Program-made: the position numbers and the translations under genes
Notes under the pieces: model-generated
What the model was told of the DNA's origin: nothing
Databases searched by the model: none
What the model saw: only the letters and a program-made list of their open reading frames with translations
Source of the DNA: an uncultured Lewinella sp.
GTDB taxonomy: Bacteria; Bacteroidota; Bacteroidia; Chitinophagales; Saprospiraceae
Reading direction: 5' to 3'
DNA length: 64,000 nt
Assembly (NCBI GenBank): GCA_913057725.1
Contig: CAJXOS010000012.1
Span: 1-64,000, forward strand
Shown: in pieces, positions 28,376 to 35,244 of the stretch
Layout: every line of letters starts with the position of its first letter
Position numbering within the stretch: position 1 is the first letter of the stretch

Positions 28376-30418
28376 ATGAAAAAACAGCCGCCTTTCAGGA
28401 TTGGTCAGTTTATTGTTGAACCGGAGCGCTACAGCATGCGCAGCGGGGCACAGACCATCGATGTCAGTAAGCGGCTGATGCAATTACTTCTCTTTCTTGC
28501 TGCCCGTCCTGACGAGGTCGTTACCAAGGAAGCCCTTCTCGACAATATCTGGCCGGGTGTAATGGTCAGCGATGATACCATTCGGAAATCTATATCCGAT
28601 TTGCGGATCCTTTTCCAGCAACATGACGGCTCCATTGAGATCGAATCCATCCGTGGTGTTGGGTATCGGTTACTAAGCCCCGTCGAGCCAGTGAAGGCTC
28701 CATTGGAAGTAGGCAATGTAAAACTGCTTTGGTCTATCGGTTTCCTATTGGCGTTTGCGCTAATGGCTTTGAGCTATTGGTCTGTCATGCAAGAGCAAGT
28801 GCAGATCCGCATTGACAACACCTTGAACCGTGCGGATGTAACCACCTCCGTCCGTTGGTCGGAGGACCAGGAGAAAATGGCCTTCGTTCAACATCTTGAA
28901 GACCAGCAAGCACTCTTCTTCCAAGAAAAGGGCAAGCGCGAGCTACCGCTCATGAAATCAGCTACGGCCCTGCGTCCGGAAGCAGCTTTTTCGCCGGATG
29001 GCAACGCACTTATTTATCTGGACCGACAAGGAGCGGATAAAATACTTAAGCTACGCACGCTGGAAGAAGAGACGGAGGTACAACTACAACAGTTGGAAAG
29101 TACTCCAGAGCTCTCTTCGCTCGATTGGTCTCCAGATGGTCAGTTAATTGTTTGGTCGGAAGCGAATACCGGACGGCCTTTTCAATTGCATACCTCTGCC
29201 CCGATCCGTATGAACAAGACGGCATTGACCTATCCACCGGCAGACTTTATTGGCGACATGCAAGCACGCTTCTCCCCTTCTGGGCAGCAAATGTGTTTTA
29301 TTCGTTACTCAACACCAGTGGCCTCCTACGAGGATATTCTTCCGGGCTTGGGTCAGCTTTACGTTAAAGATCTCATCAGTGGCGCTGAGATACCACTCCT
29401 TGAACGAGAAATGGTGCTGGGAGGTGTAGAATGGCTTAATGAAAACACCCTGGCCTACATCGCTAGAGATTTCTACACCTTTGGCATTCATACGATCCAT
29501 CTTGAAAGCCGGGAAAAGAATACGATCTACACCAGTGCTCGCACGCTGCGACACTTAGAAGCCTGGCAAGATTTCCTCTGGACGGAGGAGTGGCAGGAGA
29601 ATTATACCTTCCAACAGTTTGCCGCTAAGTCCGGCCAGACTACTTCAGCTTTCGATACGCCTTTGAAATGTTGGCACCCAGCTTATAGCCCGGATGGTCA
29701 GCAATTGGTGTTTGTTACGAAGGGGGAACAAGCCTATGAGCTTCGCGTCCGTCAGATAGCCTCTGGCCAGGAACAAGTCCTCTTTGCCGCACCAATGTTG
29801 ATTCAGTCACCACAATGGTCCCCGCAGGGCGATGCCCTCGTATTTATGCTGGAAGGTAGCGAAGCCGGTGTCTGTACATTTGAATTTAGCAACCGCCGAA
29901 TTACGCCTTTGACTAAAGGTGAATATCCTACCTGGAGTATGGATGGTGATGCTGTACATTACGTCGCTGAGCAAGATGGTCAGCGACAAGTATTCCGTCA
30001 GTCCACCAGCATTGGAAGTGAAGCAGTACCACTATTTGCCTTACCGGCGAACAGAGTGTGGGCCTATCAAAACGACTGGTTATTCAGCCATGTTTCTGAA
30101 CCAGGTCTCTGGTTGTACCGGAGTGATAGCAAAGCGATCGAGCAGATCGTGCTAGACTTCCACCCTGCTGATACGCCCAATTGGCTACTTACAGGCAATG
30201 AGCTGTACTACTGGAGCAGAGATGCCAACAACCTACCGACCGTACAGCATCATGACCTATCAAACGGCGTTTCTAATACCGTGTTCCAGTTAGAGCAAGA
30301 ACTACCATTCGACTATTCTGGCTTTGCCGTGCAATCGGGTGAAGACACCGTACTCTTCCCTGCTGAACAGAAGGTGGAGAACAAGCTCGTGCCCGTTCCT
30401 ATTGAAGGAAATAAATAG
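28376..30418 (+). CDS. Membrane-bound winged-helix regulator with WD40-like propeller (CadC-like layout)
   Basis: A 680-residue one-component regulator. Residues 5-100 are an OmpR/CadC-type winged helix (SKRLMQLLLFLAARPDEVVTKEALLDNIWPG, ending IRGVGYRLL). A single transmembrane helix lies at about 116-136. The rest is a TolB/WD40-like propeller outside the inner membrane, with repeated SPDG blades (FSPDGNALIYLD, WSPDGQLIVWSE, YSPDGQQLVFVT). DNA is bound in the cytoplasm and a signal is read in the periplasm. Three direct repeats just upstream may be its own site. The next gene (FtsX permease) is convergent with a 6-base gap. Confidence 0.9.
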   Translation: MKKQPPFRIGQFIVEPERYSMRSGAQTIDVSKRLMQLLLFLAARPDEVVTKEALLDNIWPGVMVSDDTIRKSISDLRILFQQHDGSIEIESIRGVGYRLLSPVEPVKAPLEVGNVKLLWSIGFLLAFALMALSYWSVMQEQVQIRIDNTLNRADVTTSVRWSEDQEKMAFVQHLEDQQALFFQEKGKRELPLMKSATALRPEAAFSPDGNALIYLDRQGADKILKLRTLEEETEVQLQQLESTPELSSLDWSPDGQLIVWSEANTGRPFQLHTSAPIRMNKTALTYPPADFIGDMQARFSPSGQQMCFIRYSTPVASYEDILPGLGQLYVKDLISGAEIPLLEREMVLGGVEWLNENTLAYIARDFYTFGIHTIHLESREKNTIYTSARTLRHLEAWQDFLWTEEWQENYTFQQFAAKSGQTTSAFDTPLKCWHPAYSPDGQQLVFVTKGEQAYELRVRQIASGQEQVLFAAPMLIQSPQWSPQGDALVFMLEGSEAGVCTFEFSNRRITPLTKGEYPTWSMDGDAVHYVAEQDGQRQVFRQSTSIGSEAVPLFALPANRVWAYQNDWLFSHVSEPGLWLYRSDSKAIEQIVLDFHPADTPNWLLTGNELYYWSRDANNLPTVQHHDLSNGVSNTVFQLEQELPFDYSGFAVQSGEDTVLFPAEQKVENKLVPVPIEGNK

Positions 30419-30424
30419 CTAACC

Positions 30425-32884
30425 TTACTCCCCTCTTAATTGCTCCGCTGGATTCACCCATGCTGCCCGCAGCGCATGATAACTGACCGTAATAAAGGCG
30501 ACGCCTAAGCCTACGATCGCTGCTAGCGGGAATGTCCACCAACTCAACTTCACTTGGTAGGCGTAGTCCTGAAGCCAGTAACGAATTCCCCACCATGCCA
30601 GTGGAAGGCCAATCACCACCGCAATCACGATAAGCTTGAGGAAATTACTACTCAACAGCAGTACCAAGCGTGTGGTACCAGCTCCTAAAATTTTGCGAAT
30701 ACTGATTTCGCGATTTCTCAACTGCGCTGCGTAGGCTGCCAAACCAATCAGGCCAAGGCAAGCAACAAGTATAGTCAAGAGCGTAAACAGAATAAGCATT
30801 TGTGCGAATTGCTGATCACTGGCGTATTGCTGGGCGAACTGCTCGTCCAAGAAGGTGTAGGAAAAGCCATTCCCGGGAAAGTGCTCGTCATAAAGCGCCT
30901 GTACCTGCGGCATAGTCGCCTCTACTTGATTGGCAGCCAGGCGGACGGAGATGGCATTGTTCGTACTGTACAGCGGCTGCAGTATCATCGGGTCAATTGT
31001 ACTGTGCAATGACAATTGATGGAAATCTGGCACTACGCCAATAATGGTCCATTCCTTACCATAAGTATCAACGACTTGCCCGACGGCAGACTCATTATCC
31101 TTGAAGCCCAATGTCTCTACGCCCGTCTCATTGATCAAGACATGCTGTACCTCATTGAAATCAGCGCTGTGATCTTGAGGTTCAAAAGGACGGCCGGCCA
31201 AAATATCCAGCTCGTAGGTGTTCGTATAGTTGTGGTCTACGTGAATAAAACCGAAGGTGTAATTGCGATCATCTTCCGCTGCAGGTACCGTTAATCCAAA
31301 AATACGGCCGATGCCATTGCCAGGAACTCGGCTCGAGGTACAGGCCGCTTGTACCGCAGGCAATCCGGTAAGCCGCTCTTTGAATACCTCCATACGACCG
31401 ATAAAGGTGTTATCCCACTGCGAGAGGTCAGGGCTTTGAATCAACATCACCTGATCGATATTGAGGCCCAGCTCTTTTTGTTGCATGAATTGGATCTGGT
31501 TGTACACCAGTATCGTTCCGGCAATCAAGGCAATAGATGCCGTAAACTGGAAAACGATCAGCCCTTGCTGCAAACGCTTACCACGCCCTTGGCCACCAAA
31601 GTAGCCCTTCACTACCGTGGCCATCTGCTGAGAGCTCAACACCCACGAAGGATAAAGCGCTGAAAGCAGCAAGCCCGTTGTAGTAAGCGCTAGGCCGGTA
31701 ATCCATAAGCCTGGATGATCCTGTAGCACCTCTACTAAACTTACGGTAGACAAGTCTACACTCAGTTGCTGTTCAATTAGGGGAGTTACAGCACCTAGCA
31801 GAACTACTGCTAAGCCCAAACTGAGGACATTAGCCAGCAATGCCTCCACAAAGAACTGCCCCACTAGCTGCCGTGTACTTGCACCCACCACCTTTCGAAC
31901 GCCCACTTCCTGCGCACGTTCCAGTGCACGTGATGCAGTGAGGTTCGCATAGTTGATCCAGGCTATCAATAGGATGAAGAAGGCAATGAGCAGTAATGCC
32001 CAAATGGAATTACCGTTGGCTTTTCGTGCCCAGTCGTATTCTAAATCGCTAGAATAGAGGTGAGCATCCAAGACGGGTTGTAGATAAAAGACCTCGTTTG
32101 CTCCCGATACTTCATCGCCGCGAAAATAGCGATCAGAGAAGTCAGCGAGCTTGGTTTCGAAAGCTTTAGGATCCGTTCCTGGTGCCAATTCCAGATAATG
32201 ATAGAAATCAGACCAGGTCCAGCTTTGATCTACATCCGGTCCCCAAGCTTCTATCAAGGTTTGGTAGGAAATCAGGACTTCAATATCCAGATGGGAATTT
32301 GAAGGCACATCAGCTATTACACCTGTGATCGTGAAGGGGAGTGAATCGCCATCTACCTCAATGAGTTCTCCCAGTGCTCGATGGTAATCAGAAGATTTTA
32401 GACCGAACCACTCTTCGATAAAACTAGCGGTAATCACAGCTTGGCGGCTACGTGCCAATAGACTATCATTAGCAGCAGCTAATACTGGAAAATCAAAGAC
32501 CTCTAAAAAGGCATGATCCACATAGTATACACCTTCTACTTGATGCAATTCGCCATCAATGGGCTTGATCCATTCGCCACCGCCACCGAAGAAGCGGGTA
32601 GCGTTCGTTACTTCGGGATAATCATTTAAGATAGTAGGCCCCACTGTCGGGTAGGTAATAGGCCCTTTCTGCACCATTTCGCCGTTCTGGTAGCGTTCAT
32701 TGATAACCCGATAGATATTATCGGCATTCGCGTGAAACCGGTCAAAGCTCAGTTCAAAGCCAATGTAACGCAACAGCAGTAGGCAGGCTGCCATACCCAT
32801 GGCTAGCCCAAAGAAATGGATAAAGGTGTAGCCCGGTCGGCGGCGGGCATTTCTCAAAGCGATCTTAAGATATTGAAATAGCAT
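30425..32884 (-). CDS. FtsX/MacB-like ABC transporter permease
   Basis: An 819-residue permease of the duplicated FtsX type found in Bacteroidota. The first membrane helix is at about 20-42 (PGYTFIHFFGLAMGMAACLLLL). A MacB-like periplasmic domain runs to about 280, followed by an FtsX core of three helices (about 290-405). A second helix near 430, a second periplasmic domain and a second FtsX core (about 690-810, with RNREISIRKILGAG) complete the protein. The likely role is a mechanotransmission-type exporter or lipoprotein/peptide extruder with the divergent ATPase at 33216. A sigma-54-like promoter is directly upstream. Confidence 0.92.
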   Translation of the reverse strand: MLFQYLKIALRNARRRPGYTFIHFFGLAMGMAACLLLLRYIGFELSFDRFHANADNIYRVINERYQNGEMVQKGPITYPTVGPTILNDYPEVTNATRFFGGGGEWIKPIDGELHQVEGVYYVDHAFLEVFDFPVLAAANDSLLARSRQAVITASFIEEWFGLKSSDYHRALGELIEVDGDSLPFTITGVIADVPSNSHLDIEVLISYQTLIEAWGPDVDQSWTWSDFYHYLELAPGTDPKAFETKLADFSDRYFRGDEVSGANEVFYLQPVLDAHLYSSDLEYDWARKANGNSIWALLLIAFFILLIAWINYANLTASRALERAQEVGVRKVVGASTRQLVGQFFVEALLANVLSLGLAVVLLGAVTPLIEQQLSVDLSTVSLVEVLQDHPGLWITGLALTTTGLLLSALYPSWVLSSQQMATVVKGYFGGQGRGKRLQQGLIVFQFTASIALIAGTILVYNQIQFMQQKELGLNIDQVMLIQSPDLSQWDNTFIGRMEVFKERLTGLPAVQAACTSSRVPGNGIGRIFGLTVPAAEDDRNYTFGFIHVDHNYTNTYELDILAGRPFEPQDHSADFNEVQHVLINETGVETLGFKDNESAVGQVVDTYGKEWTIIGVVPDFHQLSLHSTIDPMILQPLYSTNNAISVRLAANQVEATMPQVQALYDEHFPGNGFSYTFLDEQFAQQYASDQQFAQMLILFTLLTILVACLGLIGLAAYAAQLRNREISIRKILGAGTTRLVLLLSSNFLKLIVIAVVIGLPLAWWGIRYWLQDYAYQVKLSWWTFPLAAIVGLGVAFITVSYHALRAAWVNPAEQLRGE

Positions 32885-32911
32885 AAGTCAGGTGATTTCT
32901 ACTTTAAAATA

Positions 32912-32927
32912 ACCAAGGCCTGTGCCA
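32912..32927 (-). promoter_or_regulatory. Sigma-54-like promoter for the permease gene
   Basis: Read on the minus strand, TGGCACAGGCCTTGGT matches the -24 element perfectly and the -12 element except TTGG for TTGC, with correct spacing. Transcription would begin near 32902, 18 bases before the start codon at 32884. Confidence 0.5.
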
Positions 32928-32983
32928 CAATAAGTAAAGCACTGTAAATCAATATTTTGCAAAATTCAACGACTCCACGCGGG

Positions 32984-33040
32984 TGTTCAGAATAGAAAAC
33001 AAGTGTTCATAATCGTACAATGTTTGTTCAAGCACGAACA
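32984..33040. promoter_or_regulatory. Candidate enhancer (UAS) for an NtrC-type activator
   Basis: TGTTCA occurs at 32984, 33004 and 33025, spaced 20 and 21 bases (two helix turns). The last copy is paired with GAACA at 33036-33040 in an inverted arrangement. The cluster centre is about 110 bases from each predicted sigma-54 start site. Confidence 0.5.
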
Positions 33041-33096
33041 GCAAAAGGGCTACTGGGCGGATATTAAGCCTTTGGTAAACAGCTCGTTAGCGCTTT

Positions 33097-33112
33097 TGGC
33101 ATGTGTCTTGCC
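33097..33112 (+). promoter_or_regulatory. Sigma-54-like promoter for the ABC ATPase-kinase operon
   Basis: TGGCATGTGTCTTGCC has GG and GC at the exact -24/-12 spacing and the TTGC -12 element; the -24 element is TGGCAT instead of TGGCAC. The start would be near 33122, about 94 bases before the ATG at 33216. Confidence 0.6.
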
Positions 33113-33215
33113 CAAGAATTGAATAGTAGGCCAAGAAATCACCCGCTGTGTTTTCAGCATCATTGGCCCGATTTTTCAAAAGCTGTTATTTATCTTGGAA
33201 CTCAAAGATCAATCA

Positions 33216-33890
33216 ATGATACAACTCACCGACCTGGAAAAATCCGTACGCAACGGCTTACAAAAGGTATGGCTGCTCAACCAAATCAACCTGGAAATCA
33301 AAGAAGGGGAATTTGTAACCATCATGGGACCAAGTGGTGCTGGTAAAACTACCCTACTCAATATCCTTGGCATGCTCGATGGTGCCAGTGGTGGCTCCTA
33401 TAACTTTCTTGGCGAGCCCGTACATAAGCTCAATGAACGCAGTCGCAACGACCTGCATAAGCAGTATATGGGATTCGTATTCCAGGCTTACCACCTAATA
33501 GACGACCTTACGGTTTACGAAAACATTGAGACTCCTCTACTCTACCGTAACGTAAAGACGAAGGATCGCAAGAGTATCGTTGCCGATATGCTAGATCGCT
33601 TCCAGATTGTAGGCAAGAAAGACCTATTTCCAGAGCAACTCTCTGGTGGGCAACAACAGCTCGTGGGTGTGGCTCGTGCCATTGTACATAAGCCACGTTT
33701 GCTACTAGCAGACGAGCCGACCGGTAATCTCCATACTAAACAGGGAGAGCACATCATGGATCTTTTCAAAGAGCTCAATGATGAAGGTGTGACCATCATC
33801 CAGGTGACACATAGTGAAAAGAATGCTCAGTATGGCAACCGGATTATCGAGTTGGTGGATGGTAATATTAAAGAGGACATCAGCTTGTAA
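33216..33890 (+). CDS. ABC transporter ATP-binding protein (MacB/LolD type)
   Basis: About 224 residues from the ATG at 33216; an in-frame TTG lies 21 bases upstream. Walker A is GPSGAGKTT, the signature is LSGGQQQLVGVARA and Walker B is LLLADEPTGNL, followed by HxSEK for the switch His. The signature helix LSGGQQQ ends in LVGVA, a slight variant of the usual QRVAIA. Length and style match the MacB/LolD/FtsE group, which works with FtsX-like permeases such as the divergent gene at 30425. A histidine kinase follows 28 bases downstream. Confidence 0.95.
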   Translation: MIQLTDLEKSVRNGLQKVWLLNQINLEIKEGEFVTIMGPSGAGKTTLLNILGMLDGASGGSYNFLGEPVHKLNERSRNDLHKQYMGFVFQAYHLIDDLTVYENIETPLLYRNVKTKDRKSIVADMLDRFQIVGKKDLFPEQLSGGQQQLVGVARAIVHKPRLLLADEPTGNLHTKQGEHIMDLFKELNDEGVTIIQVTHSEKNAQYGNRIIELVDGNIKEDISL

Positions 33891-33918: not shown

Positions 33919-35244
33919 ATGCTTTACCGCTTTCGGACTATTCTCGTCATCAGGGTACTTTTGCTTACACTCGGTATTTACGGAGTGTTGGCTTCCTGGG
34001 ATGATAATTCTCTGCTGGCGTTCCTATCCGGATTACTCGCGCTGGGCAGCTTGGTCTCTATCGTCTATTTGGTTGATCAAACGAACCGAGACCTCGTTGG
34101 CTTCCTCACTTCAATCAAGTACAACGATTTTACCGCTACGTCTTCCGCTGCGCACCGCGGTGCCTCTTTCGGAGAACTCTACGATGCTTTTAACCTCATT
34201 AACCGAAAGTTTCAGGAGGTGCGAGCGGACAAGGAGGCTAATCACCAATTTCTGCAAACTATCGTTGAGCAGATAGAAGTGGGCCTCTTGTGCTATAATG
34301 AAGCAGGAGAGGTAAGGCTGATGAACAAAGCCCTGCAGCGCATGCTGCACAAATCCTTCCTGCTGCACATTGATAGTCTGGAGCAGGTAGATGCCAAGTT
34401 ATTAGAAGCCATCAAAGCCAGCCGGGAGGGAAAACGCGATCTGGTAAAGATTACGGTAGAGAACCGCCTATTACAATTAGCGGTCCTAACCAGCGAACTC
34501 CGCCTGCAGGACGAGCGCCTCTTCTTGGTAAGTATTAAGAACATCCAAAACGAATTGGAAGAGCAGGAGCTAGTGGCCTGGCAGAAATTGATCCGTATTC
34601 TGACCCACGAGATCATGAACTCCGTTGCTCCAATCACCTCTTTAAGTGGCACTATTGACGCCATGTTGGAAGAGAGTGATACTCCTGATGCCCAAACATT
34701 AGATGATGTGCGGCAATCGGTAAGAGTCATTCAGCGGCGCGGTGAGGGGCTGCTAGCGTTCACGGAAACGTACAGAAGCCTTACTCGAATTCCACCGCCT
34801 AACTTCCGCGAGGTATCCGCCAATCAACTCATGGAGCAGGTGGCTAAGTTATATGGCCCTAAAGCCGAAGAGCAAGGCATACAACTTCAACTCCACCAAT
34901 ACCCTGCTGATGTCATTCTTCAAGCTGACCCACATCTCTTAGAGCAGGTCGTGATTAACATTACCAAAAACGCCCTCGATGCTTTAGCAGAAAGGGAGGA
35001 TGGCGTTATCCATTTACACGTCAATCGCAATAAACAAGGTCAGGGTATACTCCAGGTAGCCGATAATGGTCCTGGCATTCCAGCCGAACAGCTGGAACAA
35101 ATCTTCGTTCCCTTCTTCACCACCAAGCCTACTGGCTCTGGGATCGGTCTAAGTTTATCCCGTCAAATTATCCGCATGCACAAAGGCTCTATCGAAGTGC
35201 AGTCTGTGGAAGGGGAAGGTACGGTCGTACAATTGTTGTTTTAA
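33919..35244 (+). CDS. Membrane sensor histidine kinase (NtrY-like)
   Basis: A 441-residue kinase. Two membrane helices lie at about 9-27 and 32-55 with a very short external loop, so it probably senses a membrane or intracellular signal. A PAS-like region follows (about 105-215). The phosphoacceptor is His230 in [14 protein letters not shown]. The ATPase domain has N-box [11 protein letters not shown]1 DNGPGIP and G2 GSGIGLSLS. This type commonly pairs with NtrC-like sigma-54 activators. No response regulator gene is adjacent here. It shares the ABC ATPase transcript, which starts at a sigma-54-like promoter. Confidence 0.94.

What the first reader, a model, noticed from the sequence alone, without database searches (positions are those of the whole stretch)
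32884..33216. Symmetric pair of sigma-54-like promoters around a shared TGTTCA enhancer
The gap between the divergent FtsX permease and the ABC ATPase-kinase operon holds TGGCAC-N5-TTGG on the minus strand (32912-32927) and TGGCAT-N5-TTGC on the plus strand (33097-33112), both with exact -24/-12 spacing. Between them TGTTCA repeats at 32984, 33004 and 33025 (20-21 base steps) with an inverted GAACA. The cluster centre is about 110 bases from each predicted start. One NtrC-type activator could switch the permease, the ATPase and its own kinase at once. The kinase is of the NtrY type, which fits; its response regulator is not in the window.
Basis: partly seen in the sequence, partly recalled or inferred. 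Interest (0 to 1): 0.75.

Follow-up and report, generated by a model that had tools for sequence, protein, structure and literature searches.

The report
Shared sigma-54 enhancer of exporter regulon
The gap between two divergent transporter genes carries an evolutionarily conserved pair of sigma-54 promoters around one shared activator-binding site, and the likely missing activator and several further target genes can be found elsewhere in the same genome.

Summary
The gap holds two divergent -24/-12 boxes with three 16-bp palindromes (TGTTC-N6-GAACA type, 20/21-base steps) between them, placed symmetrically (56/76/97 and 56/77/97 bases from the boxes). The tandem palindrome recurs at 25 places in 8 of 60 related genomes; 22 of 25 have a -24/-12 box 51-66 bases away. 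Distances cluster one helical turn apart, and 56 of 63 downstream genes are exporter parts or the kinase. The 'missing' response regulator is on another contig (C5), beside its own copy of the enhancer; in 7 of 13 relatives its ortholog sits next to the window kinase's ortholog. Own-genome regulon: permease | ATPase-kinase (window), adaptor-ATPase-nine permeases (C5), lone permeases (C7, C39), an exported protein (C29). In two congeners each promoter has its own palindrome pair; here the middle palindrome serves both. The window ATPase belongs to a conserved variant (His in the D-loop) found beside or with a canonical ATPase, suggesting one ATPase pair powers many scattered permeases (inferred). 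A 2025 survey reports sigma-54 enrichment at such permeases, so this is a new variant of a known kind. Nothing was tested at the bench.

The parts
30425..32884 (-). 819-aa fused MacB/FtsX-type permease (target 1)
   Evidence: Pfam MacB_PCD and FtsX, two stretches each; AlphaFold model pLDDT 80.8, best PDB match E. coli YbbAP 9ge6
32913..32927 (-). sigma-54 promoter TGGCACAGGCCTTGG driving the permease; expected +1 about 32901
   Evidence: same box in G001 (TGGCAC..TTGC) and, with one mismatch, G002 (CGGCAC..TTGC)
32940..32952 (-). IHF-like element between enhancer and box (TTGATTTACAGTG on the minus strand)
   Evidence: anchored alignment of 64 promoters; positional control; IHF consensus recalled
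32984..32999 (.). enhancer palindrome 1, TGTTCAGAATAGAAAA (weak right half)
   Evidence: conserved in both congeners
33004..33019 (.). enhancer palindrome 2, TGTTCATAATCGTACA, shared by both promoters here
   Evidence: two copies, one for each promoter, in G001 and G002
33025..33040 (.). enhancer palindrome 3, TGTTCAAGCACGAACA (exact)
33071..33089 (+). corresponding upstream element of the plus promoter (TTTGGTAAACAGCTCGTTA), a weak match
33097..33111 (+). sigma-54 promoter TGGCATGTGTCTTGC driving ATPase and kinase; expected +1 about 33123
   Evidence: conserved in G001 and G002
33216..33890 (+). ABC ATPase of a variant type (LSGGQQQL; D-loop GNLH); start set by homologs (33195 TTG is an alternative)
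33919..35244 (+). histidine kinase: two hydrophobic stretches with a very short loop, PAS-like region, HEIMNS H-box, HATPase

Best explanation
The gap is a compact divergent sigma-54 control region. Dimers of an NtrC-type response regulator, encoded on contig C5 (G000:C5:90933-92306), bind the three tandem palindromes. They assemble there into the AAA+ hexamer and, by looping over an IHF-like bend, open sigma-54 polymerase at both -24/-12 boxes. This co-induces the permease (minus) and the ATPase-kinase operon (plus). The window kinase is the regulator's partner, so the circuit includes positive feedback on the kinase. The same regulator drives an adaptor-ATPase-nine-permease gene run on C5, lone permeases on C7 and C39, and an exported protein on C29. 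The system is one cluster (regulator-kinase divergent from adaptor-ATPase-ATPase-permeases) in some relatives and is split here, with the enhancer code keeping the parts co-regulated. SHOWN by sequence: boxes, palindromes, conservation, recurrence, phasing, co-occurrence, adjacency in relatives. INFERRED: binding, phosphotransfer, looping, sigma-54 dependence, the exporter's substrate (envelope-active compounds are likely by family).
For: Tandem palindrome at 25 places in 8 of 60 relatives, reversed control 0; 22 of 25 places have a box (at most 1 mismatch) 51-66 bases away, five control intervals 0-2 of 25. Palindrome+box pattern: 52 matches in 13 of 60 genomes, reversed control 0 in all 60. 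Purine at position 6 in 100 of 100 exact palindromes and pyrimidine at 11 in 98 of 100, neither in the search pattern; palindrome spacing 20-22 in 52 of 53; proximal distances 51-56 (40), 62-66 (19), 72-76 (4), 99 (1); Rayleigh p 1e-13 to 1e-14, 0 of 2000 uniform simulations as phased. Downstream genes: 33 MacB_PCD, 15 HlyD, 7 ABC ATPase, 1 kinase of 63. Regulator identity: C5 regulator beside the enhancer; kinase in 13 of 14 regulator genomes and 0 of 46 others; adjacent in 7 of 13; a regulator within 500 bases upstream of the kinase in 72 of 80 named loci, 5 untellable, 3 not. Conserved gap in G001 and G002.
Against: No transcript start, binding or genetic data. The C83 paralogous regulator has a similar recognition helix, and its cluster carries a related, weaker palindrome TGTTTGATATCGGACG, so cross-regulation is possible. 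Six of the 14 regulator genomes lack an exact tandem palindrome; four of those six have looser ones in the catalogue, G019 and G027 have none. Three of 25 tandem places have no box in range. 11 of 15 exact palindromes in the genome have no box within 125 bases. Kinase and regulator are not adjacent in this genus. Seven of 63 downstream genes are not exporter parts; three of these look like chance matches (C75, G031, G052:C74). Ortholog/paralog cut-offs at the low end are soft (regulators 51% versus 49%). Related genomes are not independent samples. The box search window (50-80 bases) limits the distance range, though not.
Confidence: 0.85

Rival explanations
1. The enhancer is real, but the C83 paralogous regulator (which has its own adjacent kinase) is the main activator, or both act on it.
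For: Similar C-terminal helices (GITRSALYRR versus GLTRAALYRR); the C83-type cluster in G017 (C169) and adaptor promoters in G022, G035 and G052, which have only more distant regulators, carry single palindromes of the same class.
Against: The exact tandem form occurs in 8 of 14 genomes with the C5-type regulator and 0 of 46 without. The C5 regulator is the one beside the tandem enhancer, and C83 already has an adjacent kinase.
Confidence: 0.08
2. The palindromes are the operator of an unrelated repressor or activator that happens to sit beside sigma-54 boxes.
For: Palindromic operators are common. Four of 15 exact palindromes genome-wide lie beside a sigma-54 box (C5, C7, C12, C29); the other 11 have none, even with one mismatch, within 125 bases on either side.
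Against: Fixed helical phasing to the boxes, tandem 20-22 spacing, and the regulator's own gene beside it in G000-G003, G017, G023, G030, G032 and G033. The 11 without a box are single palindromes of mostly other inner sequence.
Confidence: 0.04
3. Chance boxes in an AT-rich gap; transcription is from ordinary promoters.
For: Single -24/-12 boxes are in large part chance in this genome (57 per strand versus 29-36 for the reversed pattern).
Against: Shuffles, conservation and recurrence. No Bacteroidota -7 motif TANNTTTG (recalled) in the gap on either strand.
Confidence: 0.02

Closest known systems
sigma-54 / NtrC-type enhancer (e.g. NtrC at glnA; recalled)
   Same: -24/-12 boxes, tandem palindromes, helical phasing, IHF-like bend, AAA+ response regulator with C-terminal HTH
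   Different: Palindromes lie close (51-66 bases in 59 of 64 promoters), one enhancer serves two divergent promoters, and the targets are FtsX-type exporters, not nitrogen genes
sigma-54 enrichment at COG0577 FtsX permeases in Bacteroidia (PMC12316311; passages read)
   Same: Predicted sigma-54 promoters before FtsX/MacB-type permeases in Bacteroidota
   Different: The passages seen name no activator, enhancer, kinase or scattered regulon for them; 'UAS' and 'bEBP' occur 0 times in its main text
BceAB-RS modules (PMC5985334, passages)
   Same: FtsX-type permease, separate ATPase, dedicated kinase and response regulator; kinase with almost no sensor loop (Bce kinase loop recalled)
   Different: Output through sigma-54 and an NtrC-type regulator; adaptor protein present; many permeases per kinase; NtrY-like kinase core
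YbbAP / MacAB-TolC / LolCDE (type VII ABC)
   Same: Permease model matches YbbAP over its length (9ge6, E 3e-18, TM 0.47, rmsd 11.5); adaptor and permease families as in MacAB
   Different: Two different ATPases, one with His in the D-loop; many lone permeases
MsmK-type shared ATPase (PMC4519317, start of abstract in listing)
   Same: One ATPase serving several permeases
   Different: That case concerns carbohydrate uptake; here it is only inferred, for exporters, with an ATPase pair

Membership tests
sigma-54 promoter | TGGCA(C/T)-N5-TTG(C) with exact spacing | tested here: met
   the minus box has TTGG
sigma-54 promoter | rpoN in the genome | tested here: met
   one gene, C25, E 2e-53
sigma-54 promoter | conserved at the orthologous place in relatives | tested here: met
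   G001 and G002, both promoters; G002's minus box has one mismatch; G003 lacks the locus
sigma-54 promoter | transcript start 12 bases after the -12 box; rpoN dependence | not testable with these tools
   needs RNA and mutants
NtrC-type enhancer | tandem palindromes in helical phase with each other and the promoter | tested here: met
NtrC-type enhancer | bound by an NtrC-type regulator | not testable with these tools
   inferred from regulator gene beside the enhancer and co-occurrence
NtrBC/NtrYX-like two-component pair | kinase and regulator adjacent or co-occurring | tested here: met
   7 of 13 adjacent in relatives; 72 of 80 named loci; not adjacent in this genus
NtrBC/NtrYX-like two-component pair | control of nitrogen metabolism | tested here: not met
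   56 of 63 downstream genes are exporter parts or the kinase; so not filed as Ntr
Bce-type sensing module | kinase with two TM helices and a very short extracytoplasmic loop (recalled) | tested here: met
   hydropathy only: stretches about 7-27 and 30-55; alignment
Bce-type sensing module | BceB-type 10-TM permease with one extracellular domain | tested here: not met
   two MacB_PCD stretches; best match YbbAP; so 'works like', not a member
MacB/FtsX (type VII) ABC transporter | MacB_PCD + FtsX domains | tested here: met

The most novel reading that the evidence does not exclude
One sigma-54 enhancer code commands a hub-and-spoke exporter: a single kinase/regulator, one adaptor and one asymmetric ATPase pair (canonical ATPase1 plus the window's D-loop-His ATPase2) serve a whole family of fused FtsX permeases scattered over the genome. 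The kinase reads the activity of these transporters rather than a ligand. Basis: in this genome I saw 23 fused permeases of this type, 12 of them behind this enhancer (nine in one gene run), and only two such ATPase genes beside any of them: ATPase1 in the C5 run and ATPase2 divergent from the window permease (a different 844-aa MacB_PCD protein on C211 has an ATPase of its own and is not counted; half-size permeases were not fetched apart from C83). In 18 of 18 permease loci checked (7 behind the enhancer, 11 not), no such ATPase lies in the fetched 8-14 kb. ATPase2 keeps LSGGQQQL and GNLH in 8 of 8 aligned sequences, and is found at 65% identity or more in 12 of the 13 kinase genomes and 0 of the other 47 (the G032 copy has an in-frame TGA).
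Probability: 0.35. Interest if true: 0.75.

Novelty: new variant of a known kind. Interest (0 to 1): 0.58.

Why it matters
Sigma-54 control outside Proteobacteria is little mapped. This gives a specific candidate activator, its likely binding code, its kinase and its targets for a module whose kinase-regulator pair is found in Bacteroidota and neighbouring phyla, so regulons can be read from sequence. It shows a cluster broken up in evolution while its co-regulation is kept by a common enhancer, and a case where one palindrome serves two promoters that have separate pairs in sister species. If the shared-ATPase reading holds, it would explain the many permeases in this genome with no ATPase beside them.

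Tried and rejected
Rejected: (1) Chance boxes. (2) A separate Bacteroidota vegetative promoter in the gap: no TANNTTTG match on either strand (motif recalled). (3) The other four NtrC-type regulators as the main activator: C4 lies near a contig end beside a PhoB/PhoR-like pair, C24 by glycosyltransferase genes, C74 in an unrelated gene set, C83 has its own kinase (functions by eye from the translations); only C83 remains a rival. (4) The IHF-like element as regulon-specific: its composite with -24/-12 gave 18 matches in 10 of 60 genomes, reversed control 0; 7 of the 18 are catalogue promoters, 3 more have weaker palindromes upstream and 8 have none, so it is probably a general feature of sigma-54 promoters here. 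The element is nearly palindromic, so the opposite strand scores as well (32 of 64 at one mismatch), and at two mismatches it is less distinct (49 of 64 against 20 downstream and 20 in shuffles). (5) Catalogue entries C75 (inside a CHAT/TPR gene), G031 and G052:C74 look like chance; they were kept in the counts. (6) C42 permease: box with one mismatch and a single palindrome 85 bases away; marginal, not counted. (7) Nine paper searches gave only PMC12316311 as directly relevant among the rows listed; most subscription papers are not held.

Led nowhere: the organism cannot be named from these tools (Saprospiraceae-like by relatives; inferred). only reported that the structure job was unfinished.
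Full report
WHAT IS THERE. The gap 32885-33215 separates a minus-strand permease (30425-32884) from a plus-strand ATPase (33216-33890) and kinase (33919-35244). It holds TGGCACAGGCCTTGG (minus, 32913-32927) and TGGCATGTGTCTTGC (plus, 33097-33111). Between them are three 16-bp palindromes of the form TGTTC-N6-GAACA at 32984 (1 mismatch), 33004 (1) and 33025 (0). Box-to-palindrome distances are 56/76/97 on one side and 56/77/97 on the other. In 20,000 dinucleotide shuffles of the gap a box appeared on some strand 132 times, on both strands once, and the tandem palindrome never. Isolated boxes are common by chance genome-wide (57 per strand against 29-36 for the reversed pattern), so the rest of the argument uses the combination.

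RECURRENCE. Exact TGTTC-N6-GAACA occurs 15 times in the 7.19-Mb genome. Four of these lie beside a box: the window; C5, in the gap between an NtrC-type regulator and an adaptor/ABC gene run; C7, before a permease; and C29, before a 135-aa exported protein. The other 11 have no box, even with one mismatch, within 125 bases on either side. A tandem version of the pattern was searched in 60 relatives (own genome included) and found at 25 places in 8 genomes, with none for the reversed pattern. Without having been asked for, a -24/-12 box (at most one mismatch) lies 51-66 bases from 22 of the 25 places; five control intervals of equal width gave 0-2 of 25. The three without one in that range are G017:C192, G023:C535 and G026:C93 (box at 99). 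Searching palindrome plus box gave 52 matches, some sharing a box, in 13 of 60 genomes, reversed control 0 in all 60.

PHASING AND MOTIF. From the fetched loci I catalogued 64 promoters, 51 with two or more palindromes (at most one mismatch). Spacings between palindromes are 20-22 bases in 52 of 53. The nearest palindrome ends 51-56 (40 promoters), 62-66 (19), 72-76 (4) or 99 (1) bases before the box: one helical turn apart (Rayleigh p 1e-13 to 1e-14, 0 of 2000 uniform simulations). All 100 exact palindromes have a purine at position 6, and 98 have a pyrimidine at 11, neither of which was in the pattern. A conserved element resembling the IHF site (WATCAANNNNTTR, recalled) lies within the 36 bases before the box: 28 of 64 at one mismatch, against 0 of 64 in the 36 bases upstream of that, 1 of 64 downstream of the box, and a mean of 2.6 (largest 6) in shuffles. 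Of 18 exact composites of this element and a box in the 60 genomes, 8 have no palindrome upstream, so it is probably general.

TARGETS. Of 63 downstream proteins (one promoter, in G003, has no gene left) 33 match MacB_PCD, 15 HlyD adaptor, 7 ABC ATPase and 1 is a window-type kinase; 7 are other. In the window's genome the set is: permease | ATPase-kinase (C12), adaptor-ATPase1-nine fused permeases (C5, about 65.9-90.6 kb, one strand), single permeases on C7 and C39, and the exported protein on C29. C42 is marginal and C75 is chance. A permease 72% identical to the C7 one has the same arrangement in G002.

THE REGULATOR. The genome has one rpoN and five full-length NtrC-type regulators, none on the window contig. 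The C5 one sits beside the enhancer. Its orthologs (51% identity or more; the next paralogs are at 49%) are in 14 of 60 relatives. The window kinase's orthologs (37% or more, near full length) are in 13 of these and in 0 of the other 46 (Fisher 3e-12, not corrected for kinship). The two genes are adjacent in G004, G019, G026, G027, G030, G032 and G033 (7 of 13) and lie 26-28 kb apart on one contig in congeners G001 and G002. In 80 named loci with kinase relatives (Bacteroidota, Ignavibacteria, KSB1, Latescibacterota, Gemmatimonadota and others by record title; the best 80 of a capped scan), an NtrC-type regulator lies within 500 bases upstream in 72; 5 contigs are too short to tell and 3 lack it. 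Of 59 of these with more than 4 kb upstream, 38 have a divergent adaptor, 42 an ATPase and 25 a permease of the reference kinds. Exact palindromes (TGTNCR-N4-YGNACA) occur in 36 of those 80 loci against 4 for the reversed pattern, and with a perfect box 45-110 bases off in 14 against 0. The exact tandem palindrome occurs in 8 of 14 regulator genomes and 0 of 46 others. The genome lists 5.15% contamination, but both the C12-type and the C5-type locus lie on the single contig of G001, so the link is not an assembly artefact.

EVOLUTION. In G019 and G032 the parts form one cluster: regulator-kinase divergent from adaptor-ATPase1-ATPase2-permeases (the G032 ATPase2 has an in-frame TGA). In this genus they are split. 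Aligning the gap of G000, G001 and G002 shows both boxes and the palindromes conserved, but the congeners carry a second copy of the ATCGTACA half-site 209 and 215 bases after the first, so that each promoter has its own pair. In the window genome there is one copy, and the middle palindrome serves both. Either a deletion between these repeats fused two enhancers here or the congeners gained sequence; I did not resolve which. Congener G003 has no kinase, ATPase2 or adaptor ortholog (best matches 30%, 45% and 21%); it keeps the regulator and an enhancer beside a changed box, TGACAC.

HOW IT LIKELY WORKS. Inferred: a signal reaches the kinase, whose two hydrophobic stretches are joined by only a few residues (hydropathy), which recalls Bce-type kinases that depend on the transporter for sensing (PMC5985334, passages). 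The phosphorylated C5 regulator fills the tandem palindromes, hexamerises, and opens sigma-54 polymerase on both sides. [quoted passage not shown] The window ATPase is a conserved variant (LSGGQQQL, GNLH in 8 of 8) related to a canonical ATPase1 (LSGGQQQR, GNLD in 7 of 7). It occurs at 65% identity or more only in genomes with the kinase (12 of 13, missing in the fragmented G023; 0 of 47 others). Among the named loci, three carry an LH-type second ATPase (L254, L272, L297) and three a QH, LN or RN one (L260, L268, L274); in L278 both are canonical. Permease loci have no such ATPase nearby in 18 of 18 examined. A shared asymmetric ATPase pair is therefore plausible but untested.

NOVELTY. Sigma-54 enrichment before FtsX-type permeases in Bacteroidia has been reported from a promoter-matrix survey (PMC12316311, passages only). 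The activator, enhancer code, kinase partner, split regulon and shared enhancer were not in the passages seen, nor in the rows listed by my nine paper searches. I file it as a new variant of a known kind.

Noticed in passing
G000:C5 about 65.9-90.6 kb (L300, L037): One adaptor, one ATPase and nine consecutive fused FtsX permease genes on one strand behind one sigma-54/enhancer promoter.
   Followed up: partly
G003:C106:95435-95551 (L198): Congener without kinase, ATPase2 or adaptor ortholog that keeps the regulator and an enhancer beside a changed box (TGACAC): a natural remnant.
   Followed up: partly
L044 (G000:C83): Complete paralogous system (TolC-like, ATPase, two half-permeases, NtrC-type regulator, kinase; adaptor at C83:11320-12501) with a related palindrome about 51 bases from a -24/-12 box.
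   Followed up: partly
64 catalogued promoters; also L201-L217: A nearly palindromic TTGATNATCAA / IHF-like element lies within about 36 bases upstream of -24 boxes, also at 8 box composites without the palindromes.
   Followed up: partly
G000:C1:42390 and 42482 (L022, L023): Two copies of TGTTCCACGTGGAACA 92 bases apart, resembling parS sites (recalled); no -24/-12 box within 125 bases.
   Followed up: no
window 28376-30418: Winged-helix (Trans_reg_C) domain fused to a PD40 beta-propeller, convergent with the permease; a different gene lies there in G001 and G002.
   Followed up: no
L039:6829-7236 (G000:C29): 135-aa exported protein of unknown function behind a strong copy of the enhancer and box.
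   Followed up: no
L040 (G000:C206): Genes resembling a contractile injection system (sheath, tube and spike proteins, by eye from the translations); the palindrome there is inside a coding frame and probably chance.
   Followed up: no
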